From NCBI GenBank assembly GCA_945893365.1, contig CAMDED010000004.1, positions 1-64,000 of the forward strand: a DNA stretch of 64,000 nucleotides. Reading direction: 5' to 3'. The DNA comes from Candidatus Sulfopaludibacter sp. SbA3 (GTDB taxonomy: Bacteria; Acidobacteriota; Terriglobia; Bryobacterales; Bryobacteraceae). Positions 57,858-63,715 of this stretch are shown here, piece by piece. Every line of letters begins with the position of its first letter. Within the stretch, counting starts at the first letter, position 1. The translations under genes and the position numbers were made by a program. The notes beneath the pieces are model-generated. The model was not told where the DNA came from and searched no databases. It worked only from the letters and a program-made list of their open reading frames with translations.

Positions 57858-59363
57858 TCATGAAAGCATGAACGTTGGTGCGTAGCCTGATTGCTGATCC
57901 TCCATAACCTGCACTTCGCGGCAAACTGCATTTAGCTGATGGCCGATGAAGCAAGCACCGCTCAACGGACCGAAGTAATACAACAACAGTCGGGTGGCAC
58001 TCCATCTCTTTACGAACGGCTGCAACAACGCTTTGACCCCACGCGCAACAGCGACTGCATCACTAGCACTGTCCAAACACCCGCGCCCAAGCTCGCGATC
58101 GGGCCGAATCAACAAGAGCGCCGAGACGGCACAGTCCCCGTAGTCAGCTACGTGGCGTCGAACGTCATTGTCCAAGGATCCCGTGACGCTGATGCCGCAG
58201 GCAACCGCAGGCCCACCGGGCGTGATGACTTCACCTTCGGCCCCGTTAACAGAGATCGCTCGAAACCCGCCGGTGGGTTGCGCATCAGTTCGCCATAGCT
58301 CCTGTTGCTGTTGAACTTCGATCGTGTATCCGGCAACTTCACTGAACGTGTGTCCAAATGCAAGCCATGCAGACAGCCGTGCTAAACCCCGCGCCCGAAT
58401 CACCCGGCAATTTGTCGTTTTGCGAACGTCAGCAAGTACCGTGCGCAACTCAGGAAGGAGTTTCTTGTTCCAGTAATCCGGGCGTTTCAGCTGATGGCCT
58501 TTGAGACACGGTCGTCCTTCGAAGTACCGTTGCCAATCCAGGACAAAGTCCGGAGTCAGGTCGAACGCGCCCTCGGTTATCGTGTTGATGTAAACTGTCA
58601 CACATCGTTCGCCATCTGCCGGCAGATACAGGCTCCGTTCCTTCAGGACCTGTTCCAGGAGATCGACCGTAATGTCCGCTTGCTTCGTCCGAATCCAAAT
58701 GCGAATGATGTCTACGGCAACCGCCAGTGCGTTCTGGTCATACTGAAGCCCTACATGCTCCATTCGGTCGGAGACCATCTGCTGCAACTGTCGAAAAGAT
58801 CCTTCGCCCAACTGTAAGTGCAGTGTTTCGATGAATGCCCGAAATTCCTGGGGAGTGGCAGCCAGATGCCTGCGCCATTCATCACGTATCTTTCCAATAT
58901 CGCTTTTCGTGCCACTCTCGAAGAATTCTTCGCTGAGCTTTCCGTCTTGGTTGTTGAGGCATTGGCCGAGTTTGTCGCTCTCCCGAGTCCATGACCAGTT
59001 GCTCACCAGATACAGCTTGATCTGTTTTCCGGGGTGTTCTGAGCCCAAACGCTTCCACGTGGAGAAGAATTTCTCAAGTAGGCTGGTCCCGTTCCCCTTG
59101 CGCTCCTGGAGCTTTTCCGACGAATAGTGCTGGGCTTGATTTTCGTGGTATTTAACCTGGAAGAAATAGTGATAAAACTCTTCGGCCTTTCCGCTTCCCG
59201 GTTCGTAGTGTACCGTTACGTCGTCAACAGAACCACCGTCAGCATCTTCGACCCGAACTCTGGTGACGTGCTCCCGTCGACGCAAGAGTGAGAGAACATG
59301 CCACCAGGAATAGAGATGCTGGTATTCGTCGCCGTTCAACCGCGGTATTACTTGGTTCGCCAT
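57858..59363 (-). CDS. cap4: CBASS effector Cap4: DUF4297 endonuclease with SAVED domain
   Basis: The 501-residue protein begins with a DUF4297-type nuclease: Glu in GDEYQHLYSW, an Asp pair in GSVDDVTVHY, and QVKY (Gln69, Lys71) as the PD-(D/E)xK-like core. The C-terminal half carries a SAVED domain (VALRPDRELG-type strand, then LLLYYFGPLSGACFIGHQLN) that binds a cyclic oligonucleotide. In Cap4 proteins, ligand binding activates DNA degradation and kills the infected cell. It is the last gene of the operon, 2 bases after the CD-NTase stop. A SAVED ligand cannot be predicted from sequence. Confidence 0.92.
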   Translation of the reverse strand: MANQVIPRLNGDEYQHLYSWWHVLSLLRRREHVTRVRVEDADGGSVDDVTVHYEPGSGKAEEFYHYFFQVKYHENQAQHYSSEKLQERKGNGTSLLEKFFSTWKRLGSEHPGKQIKLYLVSNWSWTRESDKLGQCLNNQDGKLSEEFFESGTKSDIGKIRDEWRRHLAATPQEFRAFIETLHLQLGEGSFRQLQQMVSDRMEHVGLQYDQNALAVAVDIIRIWIRTKQADITVDLLEQVLKERSLYLPADGERCVTVYINTITEGAFDLTPDFVLDWQRYFEGRPCLKGHQLKRPDYWNKKLLPELRTVLADVRKTTNCRVIRARGLARLSAWLAFGHTFSEVAGYTIEVQQQQELWRTDAQPTGGFRAISVNGAEGEVITPGGPAVACGISVTGSLDNDVRRHVADYGDCAVSALLLIRPDRELGRGCLDSASDAVAVARGVKALLQPFVKRWSATRLLLYYFGPLSGACFIGHQLNAVCREVQVMEDQQSGYAPTFMLS

Positions 59364-59365
59364 AT

Positions 59366-60244
59366 CTAGGAGAGCGGAAACAGGTCGCCGAACAGACGAC
59401 GGTAGGCCTTCAGCGCCTCACCATTTTGACCTTGGCGGCCTAAGTTGATGGCCTCACGCGCTGAGTCGCTTGCCTGCTGTAGGGCAGATTTTGCCTGGTC
59501 CTTGTCGGCCGTGGCCATGATGTCGCTCACCGGCGGACCGAGCCTTGCCGGTTCTGGCCACTCCTCGTGGATTCGAGCGGCCGCGGACGAAAGGAATGAT
59601 TCGAACTCGTAAGGGTAATCTCCACCGAACGGAGGCCGCAAAAGATCGAGAGCCATTACCTCCAGCAGGAATGACGGGCGTACCGGCTTTCCCTTCTCGA
59701 CATTCCAGCGTTTGATCATCCGCACCATGCCCTTCCACTCCCCACCGAAGGCCTTGTTCGCAGCCGTTGCCTTTTCAGCATGGATTTCTGGATCGGTATC
59801 GGTCCATCCAGTCTTCGAGTTGGTATCCGGTATCTCATAGTGGTGATCTTTGTCGTACGCGGGCACCACATCAAAGCTCAGAACACGTTCATCCTCACCG
59901 GCGACGCCGAACTCCACCGAGACTGAGCGGCGCTGACATTTGACGCAGTCCCGCCCATACTTCTCGACCAGCTTGCCTTCGACCCTGCTCAGCAAGACCG
60001 AAGGATGTTTGGCGCGATAAGGACGTTCATCTTCGCCCAGAACGAAAAAGATATCAACGTCCTTAAGTGGTTTTGTCTTGGTCCAGCGCTTATAAGATCC
60101 GGTCAGGAAATCACGCTGAACATGGAAACACTCGTCCATGTAGCCACGAATGTCTTTTTGCCGGCGCGAGGCGTCGTTCTGCTCGCGCTCGGTCAGCTCC
60201 AGACCGCTACGGAACTTCTGGAAGGCTTCTTTCACACTGATCAT
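59366..60244 (-). CDS. CBASS CD-NTase (cyclic oligonucleotide synthase)
   Basis: The 292-residue nucleotidyltransferase has the GSYKRWTKTKPLKDVDIFF segment with Asp62 and Asp64, and a third acidic residue at Asp125 in LSFDVVPAY, the complete metal-binding triad. Clade D enzymes are commonly paired with HORMA/TRIP13 and Cap4 effectors, so clade D is the leading guess, but the clade needs phylogeny. It makes the second messenger that activates Cap4. Its ATG abuts the HORMA stop with no gap. Confidence 0.9.
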   Translation of the reverse strand: MISVKEAFQKFRSGLELTEREQNDASRRQKDIRGYMDECFHVQRDFLTGSYKRWTKTKPLKDVDIFFVLGEDERPYRAKHPSVLLSRVEGKLVEKYGRDCVKCQRRSVSVEFGVAGEDERVLSFDVVPAYDKDHHYEIPDTNSKTGWTDTDPEIHAEKATAANKAFGGEWKGMVRMIKRWNVEKGKPVRPSFLLEVMALDLLRPPFGGDYPYEFESFLSSAAARIHEEWPEPARLGPPVSDIMATADKDQAKSALQQASDSAREAINLGRQGQNGEALKAYRRLFGDLFPLS

Positions 60245-60742
60245 TTATTTACCCCAGTAAGCAACATTGGCACCTAATCCGCTACCGCCGATCGTGGTTC
60301 CTATGCAGTACCGCGAAAAGCCAACAGTGGAACGGAGTTCGCAGGTCGACCACCCCTCAACTGAGCGCGCGTTTGGTTTCCTTGTGACTACAAATCGATA
60401 GTCACACCCTCTTGGGGCCAGTCCCGCCTTACGGATGCTATACTTGATCGCATCCGTGTCTACCCAGAGCGATCCGTCTCCAATATAGCCGTATGCGATT
60501 TCTATGTCCCACCGCCCGACTAACGCACCTGATTTGGCATCAAAGATCTCGAGGATCACGTTCTCAAGATGTTTCGATCCAATCCAAGCCGAGACTCCGC
60601 GCTCCAGCGTCGGCCATTCACGCGACATCTTCGTCACATCCAGCCCGGTTTCGCGAATTATCTCCTTAAATGAAAGCAGGAGCTTGTTGGTGACATGGGT
60701 TACGGTATGCGCGGAGGTATTGACGAACGCGTATGTGCTCAT
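60245..60742 (-). CDS. cap7: CBASS HORMA-domain protein (bacterial HORMA 1)
   Basis: The 165-residue protein matches the bacterial HORMA-1 pattern: TVTHVTNKLLLSFKEIIRET, then LVGRWDIEIAYGY, and a C-terminal GGSGLGANVAYW segment that forms the safety belt. In type III CBASS, HORMA proteins switch conformation on sensing a phage peptide and activate the CD-NTase. TRIP13 resets them. It overlaps the next HORMA gene by 4 bases (ATGA) and abuts the CD-NTase gene. Confidence 0.87.
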   Translation of the reverse strand: MSTYAFVNTSAHTVTHVTNKLLLSFKEIIRETGLDVTKMSREWPTLERGVSAWIGSKHLENVILEIFDAKSGALVGRWDIEIAYGYIGDGSLWVDTDAIKYSIRKAGLAPRGCDYRFVVTRKPNARSVEGWSTCELRSTVGFSRYCIGTTIGGSGLGANVAYWGK

Positions 60743-61206
60743 GATCGGAAGAAAGCTGCCTCGCTTACAGCGTTGCCGGTCTTCGATTCGGATGCGGGTT
60801 CGTCACCAGGCACGGCCTCGCCGAGTTTCCGGGCCGTGATCCGTTTCGATTGAAGGGCGAGCTCTGTCTGTACCCAGGCCAAATCCTCTTCCGGACACGG
60901 AAGGGACATCGACCAGTCGCCATTGGTAGGGTAAGTAGCCAGCGATGATTCAGCTTTGTCATCGCCACTGATGGCGTCCTCCCCGAAGAGACAATAGACC
61001 CGCACGCGCGGGCCATTGCTCCGGACGACGATTGCGTCTGCGGCGGGCGCTTCGGACGAGATCAGAGAGCAGGCAACTCCTGCGACGCGTTCCAGTTCGC
61101 GTCTACCATCACCGTGGGCGGATGCCAGAAGATTTGTGATAACGGTCCACGTCTCCGCCGCGCCGCGTACCGGCGTAGAGACGATGCGACGTGCAACGAC
61201 TGTCAT
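60739..61206 (-). CDS. cap8: Second CBASS HORMA-like protein (bacterial HORMA 2 type)
   Basis: The 155-residue protein has AAETWTVITNLLASAHGD, LERVAGVACSLISSEAP and RVRVYCLFGEDAISGDD, which fit the second, more divergent bacterial HORMA class. It has no obvious catalytic residues. The C-terminal 30 residues are Ser/Glu-rich and probably flexible; they could carry a closure motif for the partner HORMA. It overlaps the TRIP13 gene by 4 bases. Assignment to class 2 is from overall pattern, not from a search. Confidence 0.75.
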   Translation of the reverse strand: MTVVARRIVSTPVRGAAETWTVITNLLASAHGDGRRELERVAGVACSLISSEAPAADAIVVRSNGPRVRVYCLFGEDAISGDDKAESSLATYPTNGDWSMSLPCPEEDLAWVQTELALQSKRITARKLGEAVPGDEPASESKTGNAVSEAAFFRS

Positions 61207-62159
61207 CGACGCACCCCGTAGGAAGTTCGGCTGGCCTGCTCAACCGACGCCAGGATATCCGCAGCTGTAAGGCGCCCTGGGTCGAGAGCTGTGCGTTTGT
61301 CGCGTGCACAGGCCGCGAGCACTGACTTGCGGATACGGCGCGCATCGAGCCCAACGCTGTGCTGGATAGCTTGCTGAAACTCCCGATCCTCAACAATGTT
61401 TTTGATGCGGGGGAACACGGCTGCAAGAGCCATGACCGTGTCAGTCAGAATCCGCTCGCAGGCCCCTGCAGTCGGGAGACCGATGTCCTCGACCAGGTCC
61501 GCCCGCGAAACAAAGGCGGCATCAATGGCGTTCTCGAAGTTGCTGGTTGCAATGAAGAGGAGTTGCGGATACTGGGCCGCAAGTTGATCCAGTTGCGCGA
61601 GAACCGCATCAGTCGCGCGATGTACATCGACTGGATTGGCTTCCAGGCTAAGCTTGGCCCGGTCGGCTGCTAGAGTCTCGACCTCGTCCAGTACCACGAT
61701 AAGAGGCCCCAAGCTGGCTTGCTCAGCAACCACTTCCGCGAGCAAATGCCTAACCGCCTGTTGGCTTTTTCCCAGCGCCGCACTCGCAAGGGCGTGAGGC
61801 TCTACCTCGATATAACGGAACTTCCCTTGATCTCTTATGGTCTCAGCGGTTCGGGAGGCCAAGCCACGCGCAAGCGATGTCTTGCCGGTTCCGGGCGGTC
61901 CGACAAGCAGGATAATTCCATGGAAAGGTGCGGCTGATCGCTTCAGTTTCGGTCGAAGCGTAAAGTTGAGAACTGCCTGTGCAAGTAGCCGATCCTTCAC
62001 CGGCTGATCGACAATGATCGCATCCCACAGCTCCAAAAAGGACTGGTCGGGAAGTTTCCTGCTGTCGAGAACACCCTTGGCATCAACAACATAATCGGGA
62101 TCGCGGTCTGGAAAGTGAAGAGGTTTCAAATGGAGCCTCGCATAGTTTTTGGTTCGCAA
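61203..62159 (-). CDS. cap6: TRIP13-like AAA+ ATPase (CBASS Cap6)
   Basis: The 318-residue AAA+ protein has Walker A GPPGTGKTS (residues 87-95), Walker B IVVLDEVE (Asp158-Glu159), a sensor-1 Asn in IATSNFENAID and an Arg finger near FVSRAD. Pch2/TRIP13-type ATPases remodel closed HORMA proteins and here keep the CBASS inactive until needed. It is the first gene of the operon. No ATG exists in frame near the beginning; TTG at 62159 is the best start, about 8 bases after the predicted transcription start. Confidence 0.9.
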   Translation of the reverse strand: MRTKNYARLHLKPLHFPDRDPDYVVDAKGVLDSRKLPDQSFLELWDAIIVDQPVKDRLLAQAVLNFTLRPKLKRSAAPFHGIILLVGPPGTGKTSLARGLASRTAETIRDQGKFRYIEVEPHALASAALGKSQQAVRHLLAEVVAEQASLGPLIVVLDEVETLAADRAKLSLEANPVDVHRATDAVLAQLDQLAAQYPQLLFIATSNFENAIDAAFVSRADLVEDIGLPTAGACERILTDTVMALAAVFPRIKNIVEDREFQQAIQHSVGLDARRIRKSVLAACARDKRTALDPGRLTAADILASVEQASRTSYGVRR

Positions 62160-62173
62160 TACAGTATTTATTT

Positions 62174-62203
62174 AAAATAACGTAACTAAGTTCGCTGAGT
62201 CAA
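62174..62203 (-). promoter_or_regulatory. Predicted promoter of the CBASS operon
   Basis: On the minus strand TTGACT (62198-62203) and TATTTT (62174-62179) are separated by 18 bases. The predicted start is about 8 bases before the TTG of cap6. The -35 is embedded in the 18-bp dyad. Confidence 0.55.
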
Positions 62204-62208
62204 GCGAA
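62191..62208. promoter_or_regulatory. Candidate CapH operator (18-bp dyad over the CBASS -35)
   Basis: TTCGCT (62191-62196) and AGCGAA (62203-62208) are perfect 6-bp half-sites with a GAGTCA spacer. The predicted CBASS -35 TTGACT lies inside this dyad, so a bound XRE repressor would block RNA polymerase. A CapH-type repressor is encoded immediately on the other side. Confidence 0.55.
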
Positions 62209-62217
62209 AAGTAGGCC

Positions 62218-62247
62218 TTGGCAAGAAAGGGAGTTCCAGTATACGAT
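62218..62247 (+). promoter_or_regulatory. Predicted promoter of the capH-capP pair
   Basis: TTGGCA (62218-62223) and TACGAT (62242-62247) are separated by 18 bases, about 40 bases before the capH start. It points away from the CBASS promoter across the shared control region. Confidence 0.4.
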
Positions 62248-62285
62248 GAAGGGGTGAAAATCAGAATGAGTCACCGGTGGAGCTT

Positions 62286-62693
62286 ATGCCGTCCGTAGGT
62301 GACCGTATTCGCGAGATTCGGGAAGAGATGCGAATGAACCAGGATGTTCTGGCAGAACGGGCAGGTCTGAGCAAGGGCTTCCTGAGCGATGTCGAAAACA
62401 ACAAGCGGAATATTGGATCTCAGAACTTGCTGAAGATCGCAAACGTTCTGGGCGCGTCCATTGACTATTTGCTGCGCGGTGAGGTCAGCGATTCTGGTGT
62501 GTCCGAACCGATTGTGATCCCACCGGAACTTTCCCAAGCTGCCGAAGAACTGGAGCTTTCATACTCCGCGACGATTGAACTGCTGGAAGCGCACCGATCA
62601 GTGATCGCACGGCGAAATAATCGGGGCCTCCGAAAGTTCGCTGTGGAGGATTGGAAAAAACTGCACGAGGCCATCAAGCGGGTATTTGGCTAA
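62286..62693 (+). CDS. capH: XRE-family repressor (CapH-like)
   Basis: The 135-residue protein has an N-terminal helix-turn-helix (VGDRIREIREEMRMNQDVLA, GLSKGFLSDVENNKR) and a C-terminal helical part (YSATIELLEAHRSVIARR) suited to dimerisation. It is divergent from a CBASS operon and followed by a HExxH peptidase, exactly as in CapH/CapP regulatory pairs, where cleavage of CapH by CapP derepresses CBASS. ATG 62286 is near a GGTGGAG site; a GTG at 62277 is possible. The stop overlaps the capP start as TAATG. Confidence 0.85.
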   Translation: MPSVGDRIREIREEMRMNQDVLAERAGLSKGFLSDVENNKRNIGSQNLLKIANVLGASIDYLLRGEVSDSGVSEPIVIPPELSQAAEELELSYSATIELLEAHRSVIARRNNRGLRKFAVEDWKKLHEAIKRVFG

Positions 62694-63715
62694 TGGCTAC
62701 GACCGCCCTGAAGCGCAGCATCAAAATCCATGCACTAGCCGGCGATCTGGGGATTAGGGCTTCCAGCGATCCGGTTCGTGAGATCGTCCGTTTCTGCGAA
62801 AAGCGGATTCGGCGTTTTTTGCGAGACTTCCCAGACTGCGCGACCTTATCCGACCTCTTGCAGATCGCCGCGTCGAAACTTGGGACCCGATTTGAAGAGA
62901 TCCACTCGGACGAGGATTTGGAGGAAGTGCGCGCGAGATACTTGAGACAGGGAGAGAAGGCCTTCGCCGAACTCCACGAGGAGCTTTCACCTCAGGTTTT
63001 CGGCGTGACGTTCAGGCGGATCAACAAGAAGAGTTGGGAGCTACCGTTTGTCTCCGTGATCGACTGCCGAGGAGAGAAGTCCTTCCGCTCCTACTACACA
63101 AAGTGGCACGAACTCGGCCATCTGCTGATCCTGACCGATCAGATGCGCCTTACATTCAGGCGAACTCATTTCGAACTTGAGGACAAAGATCCTGAGGAAG
63201 CACTGGTCGACGTAATCGCCGGTACATTCGGCTTTTTGCCGGATTTGGTTCGGCCTCAGGCCACAGGGCAGCTGACATTTGACCGAATTGAAGAGATCCG
63301 GATGAACCTCTGCCCGGAAGCGAGTCAGCAAGCCTCGCTTATCGGAATCGCGAAAGCCTGGCCAACACCGTGCATTCTGCTCCAGGCGCAGATGGCACTC
63401 AAGCGTGGCGAGAAGAGGGATCTTATCCAGAGTGGTTTCGACTTTCGGGAAGCACCGAAAGAAGTGCTTCGGGCGGTCCAGGTGACGCCGAATGATGCCG
63501 CTCGCACCGTGAACTTCGTCATCTTTCCGAATATGCGGATTCCGACGCGCTCGGTGATTAGCGAGGTGTTCTCGGGGAACAATGTTGATGCCCAGGCAAT
63601 TGAAAACTTGTCCTGGTGGGAATCGAGTGACGGCAGCCAACTACCTGATGTCAGTGTCCTGGTACAGGCTCGCTCCGCGTGGGATGGGGTTCAGGCCATT
63701 ATTTTGCTGCAATAA
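62693..63715 (+). CDS. capP: CapP-like ImmA/IrrE-family metallopeptidase
   Basis: The 340-residue protein contains the zinc motif WHELGH (His139, Glu140, His143) and an acidic third-ligand candidate in DPEEALVDVIAG. A Cys at 125 lies 14 residues before the motif and is a candidate for the inhibitory cysteine switch known from CapP. The remainder is helical with a C-terminal domain. By analogy it would cut CapH after DNA damage or phage infection and switch the operon on. It starts on the last base of the capH stop codon. Confidence 0.82.
   Translation: MATTALKRSIKIHALAGDLGIRASSDPVREIVRFCEKRIRRFLRDFPDCATLSDLLQIAASKLGTRFEEIHSDEDLEEVRARYLRQGEKAFAELHEELSPQVFGVTFRRINKKSWELPFVSVIDCRGEKSFRSYYTKWHELGHLLILTDQMRLTFRRTHFELEDKDPEEALVDVIAGTFGFLPDLVRPQATGQLTFDRIEEIRMNLCPEASQQASLIGIAKAWPTPCILLQAQMALKRGEKRDLIQSGFDFREAPKEVLRAVQVTPNDAARTVNFVIFPNMRIPTRSVISEVFSGNNVDAQAIENLSWWESSDGSQLPDVSVLVQARSAWDGVQAIILLQ

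What the first reader, a model, noticed from the sequence alone, without database searches (positions are those of the whole stretch)
62174..62208. 18-bp dyad overlapping the CBASS -35: probable CapH operator
TTCGCT-N6-AGCGAA is centred on the TTGACT -35 of the minus-strand promoter, and the divergent gene encodes an XRE repressor. The arrangement would give tight repression released by CapP cleavage.
Basis: partly seen in the sequence, partly recalled or inferred. Interest (0 to 1): 0.6.

Follow-up and report, generated by a model that had tools for sequence, protein, structure and literature searches.

The report
CapH repressor operator before CBASS operon
The short mirror-image DNA sequence is very probably part of the site where a repressor protein (CapH) sits to keep a bacterial anti-phage suicide system switched off; the same half-site recurs in front of related repressor genes whatever defence system they guard, so this is a solid new example of a known kind of switch.

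Summary
Observation confirmed: TTCGCT-GAGTCA-AGCGAA lies exactly at 62191-62208, around a TTGACT -35-like hexamer. Alone it is unremarkable (6-bp arms or better in 17% of shuffles). Comparison rescues it. The conserved unit is the half-site GTTCGC: 28 of 29 non-redundant loci with relatives of this CapH carry it within 200 bp upstream of capH (shuffles 2.9), at 7.0/kb against 0.96/kb in the rest of the loci. The window's dyad is GTTCGC-N8-GCGAA(A), 62190-62209. Two of its three closest relatives keep both arms and the 8-bp spacing although spacer and flanks have diverged; the third has 7 bp. A second GTTCGC lies at 62152-62157, just downstream of a conserved -10-like element. The box stays with capH while the payload changes (type III CBASS, other CBASS, Pycsar-like, ubiquitin-like operons), and it covaries with the recognition helix: GTTCGC with SKGFLSDVEN-type helices, GTTCGG with SKSYLWELEN, the type of the E. 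coli CapH of known structure. Best reading: a composite CapH operator between back-to-back promoters, released when CapP cleaves CapH. The -35 at the dyad's centre is not conserved, so the exact CBASS promoter is open. No binding data exist. New member of a known kind.

The parts
62190..62209 (.).
   Evidence: Half-sites 6/6 and 5/6 identical to L033 and L032 at the same N8 spacing while the spacer is 1/8 or 2/8 and flanks 4-12/30 identical; GTTCGC in 28 of 29 capH upstreams
62152..62157 (+). Second, single GTTCGC half-site, promoter-proximal for the CBASS operon
   Evidence: Box and neighbouring ATAC/GTAT-like element conserved in window, L032, L033, L074; 32 bp from the dyad's left arm here, 34 bp in the other three
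62198..62203 (-).
   Evidence: Consensus match; not conserved in L032, L033, L074
62174..62179 (-). TATTTT, -10-like hexamer paired with it (18-bp spacer)
   Evidence: Consensus match; position not supported by relatives
62163..62168 (-). AATACT, alternative CBASS -10, aligned with TATACT/TATAAT of relatives, 5 bp upstream of the proximal box
   Evidence: Alignment with L032, L033, L074; no good -35 at 15-18 bp upstream
62218..62247 (+). Predicted capH promoter TTGGCA-18-TACGAT, starting 8 bp beyond the dyad
   Evidence: Scan; TTGACA lies 6-7 bp beyond the dyad in L032, L033, L074
62286..62693 (+). capH, XRE/HTH repressor (ATG 62286 with GGTGGAG upstream; GTG 62277 less likely)
   Evidence: PADLOC capH E=1e-10, Pfam HTH_3; E. 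coli CapH N-terminal domain 7t5u is the best PDB profile hit; DdrO fold
62693..63715 (+). capP, IrrE/PprI-like metallopeptidase with HELGH
   Evidence: PADLOC capP E=2.4e-4, no Pfam hit; HExxH invariant in 20 relatives; fold matches PprI 8slm/8sln and Thauera CapP 7t5t
61203..62129 (-). cap6 (TRIP13 ATPase), first CBASS gene; TTG 62129 preceded by GAGG is the likelier start than TTG 62159
   Evidence: PADLOC TRIP13 E=1.8e-129; start codons
60739..61206 (-). HORMA gene 1
   Evidence: PADLOC HORMA E=4.3e-53
60245..60742 (-). HORMA gene 2
   Evidence: PADLOC HORMA 4e-65, Pfam bacHORMA_2
59366..60244 (-). CD-NTase (oligonucleotide cyclase)
   Evidence: PADLOC Cyclase 4.3e-125, Pfam SMODS
57858..59363 (-). 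Cap4-like SAVED effector nuclease
   Evidence: PADLOC SAVED_PDDEXK 1.3e-89, Pfam SAVED and Cap4_nuclease

Best explanation
The dyad is the central element of a composite operator for the adjacent CapH repressor. CapH reads the half-site GTTCGC with its conserved recognition helix. It occupies the inverted pair GTTCGC-N8-GCGAAA (62190-62209), which lies between the divergent capH and CBASS promoters, and the single half-site at 62152-62157 near the CBASS transcription start. By covering or flanking both promoters it keeps the CBASS operon off and limits its own synthesis. When DNA damage or phage replication yields single-stranded DNA, CapP is activated, cleaves CapH, and both promoters are released. 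Shown by computation: the sequence, its conservation, its linkage to capH, its covariation with the recognition helix, and the identity of the proteins. Inferred from homology: binding, repression, autoregulation, cleavage and the ssDNA trigger. Not settled: which -10/-35 pair drives CBASS, and how a dimer fits the 8-bp spacing.
For: GTTCGC occurs upstream of capH in 28 of 29 non-redundant loci, shuffles 2.9; it is the top hexamer, and the commonest hexamer in any of 200 shuffles reached 16. Density 7.0/kb there against 0.96/kb in the rest of the loci. Arms and N8 spacing are kept in L033 and L032 while spacer and flanks diverge. The N8 layout is confined to the window's CapH clade. Payloads change behind the box: TRIP13/HORMA CBASS (window, L048), CD-NTase first (L050, L053), Pycsar cyclases (L033), ThiF/E2 operons (L046, L043, L058, L051). 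In relatives the box abuts well-formed promoters of the divergent operon, e.g. TTGACA-17-TATACT with GTTCGC directly before the -10 in L031, and the same offset in L036, L043, L045, L047, L049, L058. Type III CBASS loci without capH (L038, L039) have no box in 500 bp upstream. E. coli-type CapH genes (SKSYLWELEN helix) carry GTTCGG instead, 12 of 17 against shuffles 1.6; window-type carry GTTCGC in 27 of 28. Protein identities.
Against: No binding or expression data. The dyad by itself is not significant, and GTTCGC is not rare in this G+C-rich DNA (1.3/kb in the window; 45 of 174 coding blocks of 200 bp). N8 is seen in only three loci, two of them close relatives, and L074 has N7; elsewhere N5 or N24 are the enriched layouts, so one dimer geometry does not explain all. 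The -35 inside the dyad is not conserved. Overlap of boxes with the best-scoring promoter over all loci is only modest, 14 of 28 against 8.3 expected.
Confidence: 0.85

Rival explanations
1. The dyad serves mainly autoregulation of capH, while the single proximal half-site or another site controls CBASS.
For: In L032, L033 and L074 the dyad lies 6-7 bp upstream of the capH -35; in the window 8 bp from TTGGCA. XRE regulators are often autoregulatory (PMC12565409).
Against: In the same loci the dyad also abuts the CBASS-side -35 region, and in other clades boxes sit at the -10 of the divergent immune operon. The two roles are compatible.
Confidence: 0.2
2. The dyad is a chance palindrome without function.
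For: Shuffles give equal or longer arms in 17%.
Against: Conservation of arms and spacing with diverged spacer, recurrence in 28 of 29 loci, linkage to capH and covariation with its recognition helix.
Confidence: 0.04
3. The site belongs to another regulator (LexA or a host factor) that controls defence promoters.
For: CapHP and SOS respond to the same stress; LexA boxes of some bacteria contain GTTC (own knowledge).
Against: The own genome has no clear excess of GTTCGC-N8-GCGAAC (962 against 788 for the reversed control at up to 2 mismatches); the box follows capH across Acidobacteriota, Thermodesulfobacteriota, Myxococcota, Bacillota and Planctomycetota; it is absent from CBASS loci without capH (only two informative loci).
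Confidence: 0.04
4. The CBASS promoter is not TTGACT-18-TATTTT; its -10 is AATACT (62168-62163), so the dyad lies upstream of the promoter and the proximal half-site at its start point. This is a variant of the best explanation, not an alternative to CapH binding.
For: AATACTGTATTGCGAACC aligns with TATACTGTATTGCGAACC (L032), TATACTGCATAGCGAACC (L033) and TATAATGTATTGCGAACC (L074).
Against: The window is 2 bp shorter there and no good -35 lies 16-18 bp upstream; TTGACT-18-TATTTT scores higher (10.6).
Confidence: 0.4

Closest known systems
CapH-CapP control of CBASS (Lau et al. 2022, as cited in PMC13373217 and PMC10904395; original not readable here)
   Same: XRE repressor plus IrrE-like peptidase divergent from an immune operon; E. 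coli-type loci carry GTTCGG half-sites in the same gap, e.g. AAGTTCG-GTATAG-CGAACTT in L095
   Different: Half-site GTTCGC instead of GTTCGG, recognition helix SKGFLSDVEN instead of SKSYLWELEN, CapH 135 residues against 107 in L095, N8 dyad
DdrO-PprI/IrrE of Deinococcus and its RDRM operator
   Same: CapH and CapP models match DdrO and PprI; repressor removed by ssDNA-activated cleavage (PMC10904395); RDRM is a 17-bp palindrome (PMC8533742), the same length as the GTTCGC-N5-GCGAAC layout of some relatives
   Different: DdrO controls a genome-wide regulon; here no clear genome-wide excess of N8 sites
CapS/CapK operators (PMC13373217)
   Same: Repressor of an adjacent immune operon using one half-site at more than one spacing
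   Different: Half-site TTAA, phosphorylation instead of proteolysis

Membership tests
CapH operator | Lies in the gap between capH and the divergent immune operon | tested here: met
CapH operator | Half-site recurs upstream of related capH genes | tested here: met
   28 of 29 loci
CapH operator | Dyad layout conserved in orthologues | tested here: met
   N8 in window, L033, L032; N7 in L074; other clades use N5 or N24
CapH operator | Overlaps or flanks the regulated promoter | tested here: inconclusive
   Predicted promoters only; two candidates in the window
CapH operator | Bound by CapH | not testable with these tools
   Needs EMSA or footprinting; helix/half-site covariation is indirect support
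CapH-CapP pair | XRE HTH repressor with DdrO-like C-terminal domain | tested here: met
   full-length profile match to DdrO; C-terminal part of the model is of lower confidence
CapH-CapP pair | IrrE/PprI-like zinc peptidase with HExxH | tested here: met
   PADLOC capP match weak (2.4e-4)
CapH-CapP pair | ssDNA-activated cleavage of CapH and derepression | not testable with these tools
   By homology only (PMC10904395, PMC13373217)
Type III CBASS | CD-NTase, HORMA and TRIP13 with an effector | tested here: met
   cyclase, two HORMA, TRIP13, Cap4/SAVED

The most novel reading that the evidence does not exclude
CapH proteins follow a readable recognition code (GTTCGC for SKGFLSDVEN-type helices, GTTCGG for SKSYLWELEN-type), and capH, capP and their operator form a portable switch behind which different defence operons are exchanged, so that boxes can be used to find CapHP-controlled operons of unknown function.
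Probability: 0.6. Interest if true: 0.5.

Novelty: new member of a known kind. Interest (0 to 1): 0.42.

Why it matters
It turns a single palindrome into a defined, testable operator for a whole branch of CapH repressors, shows that the switch is independent of the immune payload, and gives a half-site and helix pair with which specificity can be tested by exchange. It could help to recognise stress-controlled defence operons from sequence alone.

Tried and rejected
Uniqueness of the dyad in the genome as evidence: rejected, the control pattern is as rare. Genome-wide regulon of the dyad: no clear excess over control for N8 (962 against 788 at up to 2 mismatches); N5 77 against 41 at up to 1 mismatch, hits not examined further, composition may explain it. 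TGAGTCA repeats (62196, 62267) as the true site: a 7-bp two-copy repeat, expected by chance in a gap of this size, not pursued. CapP searches of plasmids and viral contigs found nothing. A single-protein scan of genome contigs found nothing; the profile scan found 22 loci. N5 as the universal layout: the window dyad does not fit it. Lau et al. 2022 could not be read, so whether they reported GTTCGG is unknown to me. CapP cleavage site in CapH: not mapped (the literature look-up gave no passage).

Full report
OBSERVATION. The stated dyad is in the sequence exactly as described: TTCGCT 62191-62196, GAGTCA, AGCGAA 62203-62208. The minus-strand TTGACT-18-TATTTT match is also real. As a bare palindrome it is not significant: dinucleotide shuffles of the 126-bp gap give 6-bp or longer arms in 17%. 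The exact pattern is found once in the 7.88-Mb genome, but so is its reversed control.

CONTEXT. The minus-strand genes are a type III CBASS: TRIP13 ATPase, two HORMA proteins, CD-NTase and a Cap4/SAVED nuclease. The divergent plus-strand genes are capH and capP. CapH matches PADLOC capH; its best PDB profile hit is the E. coli MS115-1 CapH N-terminal domain (7t5u), and its model matches DdrO. CapP matches PADLOC capP weakly, has HExxH invariant in 20 relatives, and its model matches PprI/IrrE and Thauera CapP. The host is an acidobacterium: a genome of the same order (G062) carries a CapP on a 24343-base contig that matches a record titled Bryobacterales bacterium.

COMPARISON. Relatives of CapP were found in genomes of the phylum and by a profile scan of genome contigs. 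After removing duplicates, 29 loci with a capH were aligned on the capH start. The hexamer GTTCGC/GCGAAC is present within 200 bp upstream in 28 of 29, against 2.9 in shuffles; the most frequent hexamer in any of 200 shuffles reached 16. Its density is 7.0/kb there and 0.96/kb elsewhere in the loci. The loci are not fully independent (several close pairs), but they span Acidobacteriota, Thermodesulfobacteriota, Myxococcota, Bacillota and Planctomycetota.

THE WINDOW'S LAYOUT. The conserved unit is GTTCGC-N8-GCGAAA at 62190-62209. L033 has GTTCGC-N8-GCGAAC and L032 GTTCGC-N8-GCGAAT at the same distance from capH. Against L033 the arms are 6/6 and 5/6 identical, the spacer 1/8, the flanks 9/30 and 4/30. 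L074 (CapH 82% identical) has ATTCGC-N7-GCGAAC. A second GTTCGC at 62152-62157 is shared by all four, 34 bp from the dyad in the relatives and 32 bp in the window. Other clades use other layouts: GTTCGC-N24-GCGAAC in seven loci and N5 in six, both above the random-placement maximum of 5. The N8 layout is confined to the window's CapH clade. How one dimer serves N5, N8 and N24 is unexplained; N24 could be two adjacent 17-bp sites with weak inner halves (inference).

PROMOTERS. In L031, L036, L043, L045, L047, L049 and L058 GTTCGC sits directly before the -10 of a good divergent promoter (for example TTGACA-17-TATACT in L031). In L032, L033 and L074 the dyad lies between the predicted -35s of the two promoters and the second box 5 bp after the immune-operon -10. 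In the window two readings remain: TTGACT-18-TATTTT, with the -35 inside the dyad, or the -10 AATACT aligned with relatives. The TTGACT at the centre is in the diverged spacer and is not conserved. The upstream TTG of cap6 (62159) overlaps the second box and has no ribosome-binding sequence; TTG 62129 preceded by GAGG is the likelier start, leaving the box in the leader.

WHO READS THE BOX. It stays with capH while the payload differs: TRIP13/HORMA CBASS (window, L048), CD-NTase first (L050, L053), Pycsar cyclases (L033), ThiF/E2 ubiquitin-like operons (L043, L046, L051, L058). Two type III CBASS loci without capH lack it (L038, L039). CapH of the E. coli MS115-1 type, found on plasmids with its CBASS (L095), has GTTCGG in place of GTTCGC: 7 of 7 in the first set, 12 of 17 in the wider set, where four of the five without it have a different helix and the fifth (L104) has ACGAAC. 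Window-type loci have GTTCGC in 27 of 28 and GTTCGG in 3, the latter as expected by chance.

MECHANISM. By homology to CapHP and DdrO-PprI, where ssDNA activates the peptidase, the repressor is cleaved and transcription released (PMC10904395, PMC13373217), CapH bound here should block the CBASS and its own promoter until CapP is activated. Binding, repression and cleavage were not tested. The original CapH paper could not be read, and the held papers that were searched gave no CapH consensus, so the novelty of the half-site itself is uncertain.

VERDICT. It is a well-supported new member of a known kind, with a specificity difference of moderate interest.

Noticed in passing
L095-L107 compared with window, L031-L058: E. 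coli-type CapH loci carry GTTCGG half-sites, window-type carry GTTCGC: a one-base difference that follows the recognition helix.
   Followed up: partly
L032, L033, L074: The CapH proteins closest to the window's (76-82% identical) sit next to cyclase operons (Pycsar-like cyclases in L033) instead of CBASS: payload swap behind the same regulator and operator.
   Followed up: partly
window 62129 and 62159: cap6 probably starts at TTG 62129 (GAGG upstream), not at TTG 62159, which overlaps an operator half-site.
   Followed up: partly
L059-L064: Planctomycetota CapH-CapP-like pairs have a GTTCGC box upstream of capH, but the divergent gene in L059, L060, L061 and L063 is not an obvious defence gene (looks YSC84-like by eye, not searched).
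   Followed up: no
L037: A type III CBASS-like locus with a distant CapH (about 30% identical) has the repeat TCAACTATA[AG]CGAAC flanking TTGACA-17-TATGTT, with a 1236-aa P-loop-like gene (by eye) nearby.
   Followed up: no
window 62196-62202 and 62267-62273: TGAGTCA occurs twice, once inside the dyad and once just before capH; chance-level.
   Followed up: no
L097, L100, L102, L103, L105, L108: Small DUF2188 or DUF3892 genes stand first or near first in the operon divergent from E. coli-type capH on many plasmids.
   Followed up: no
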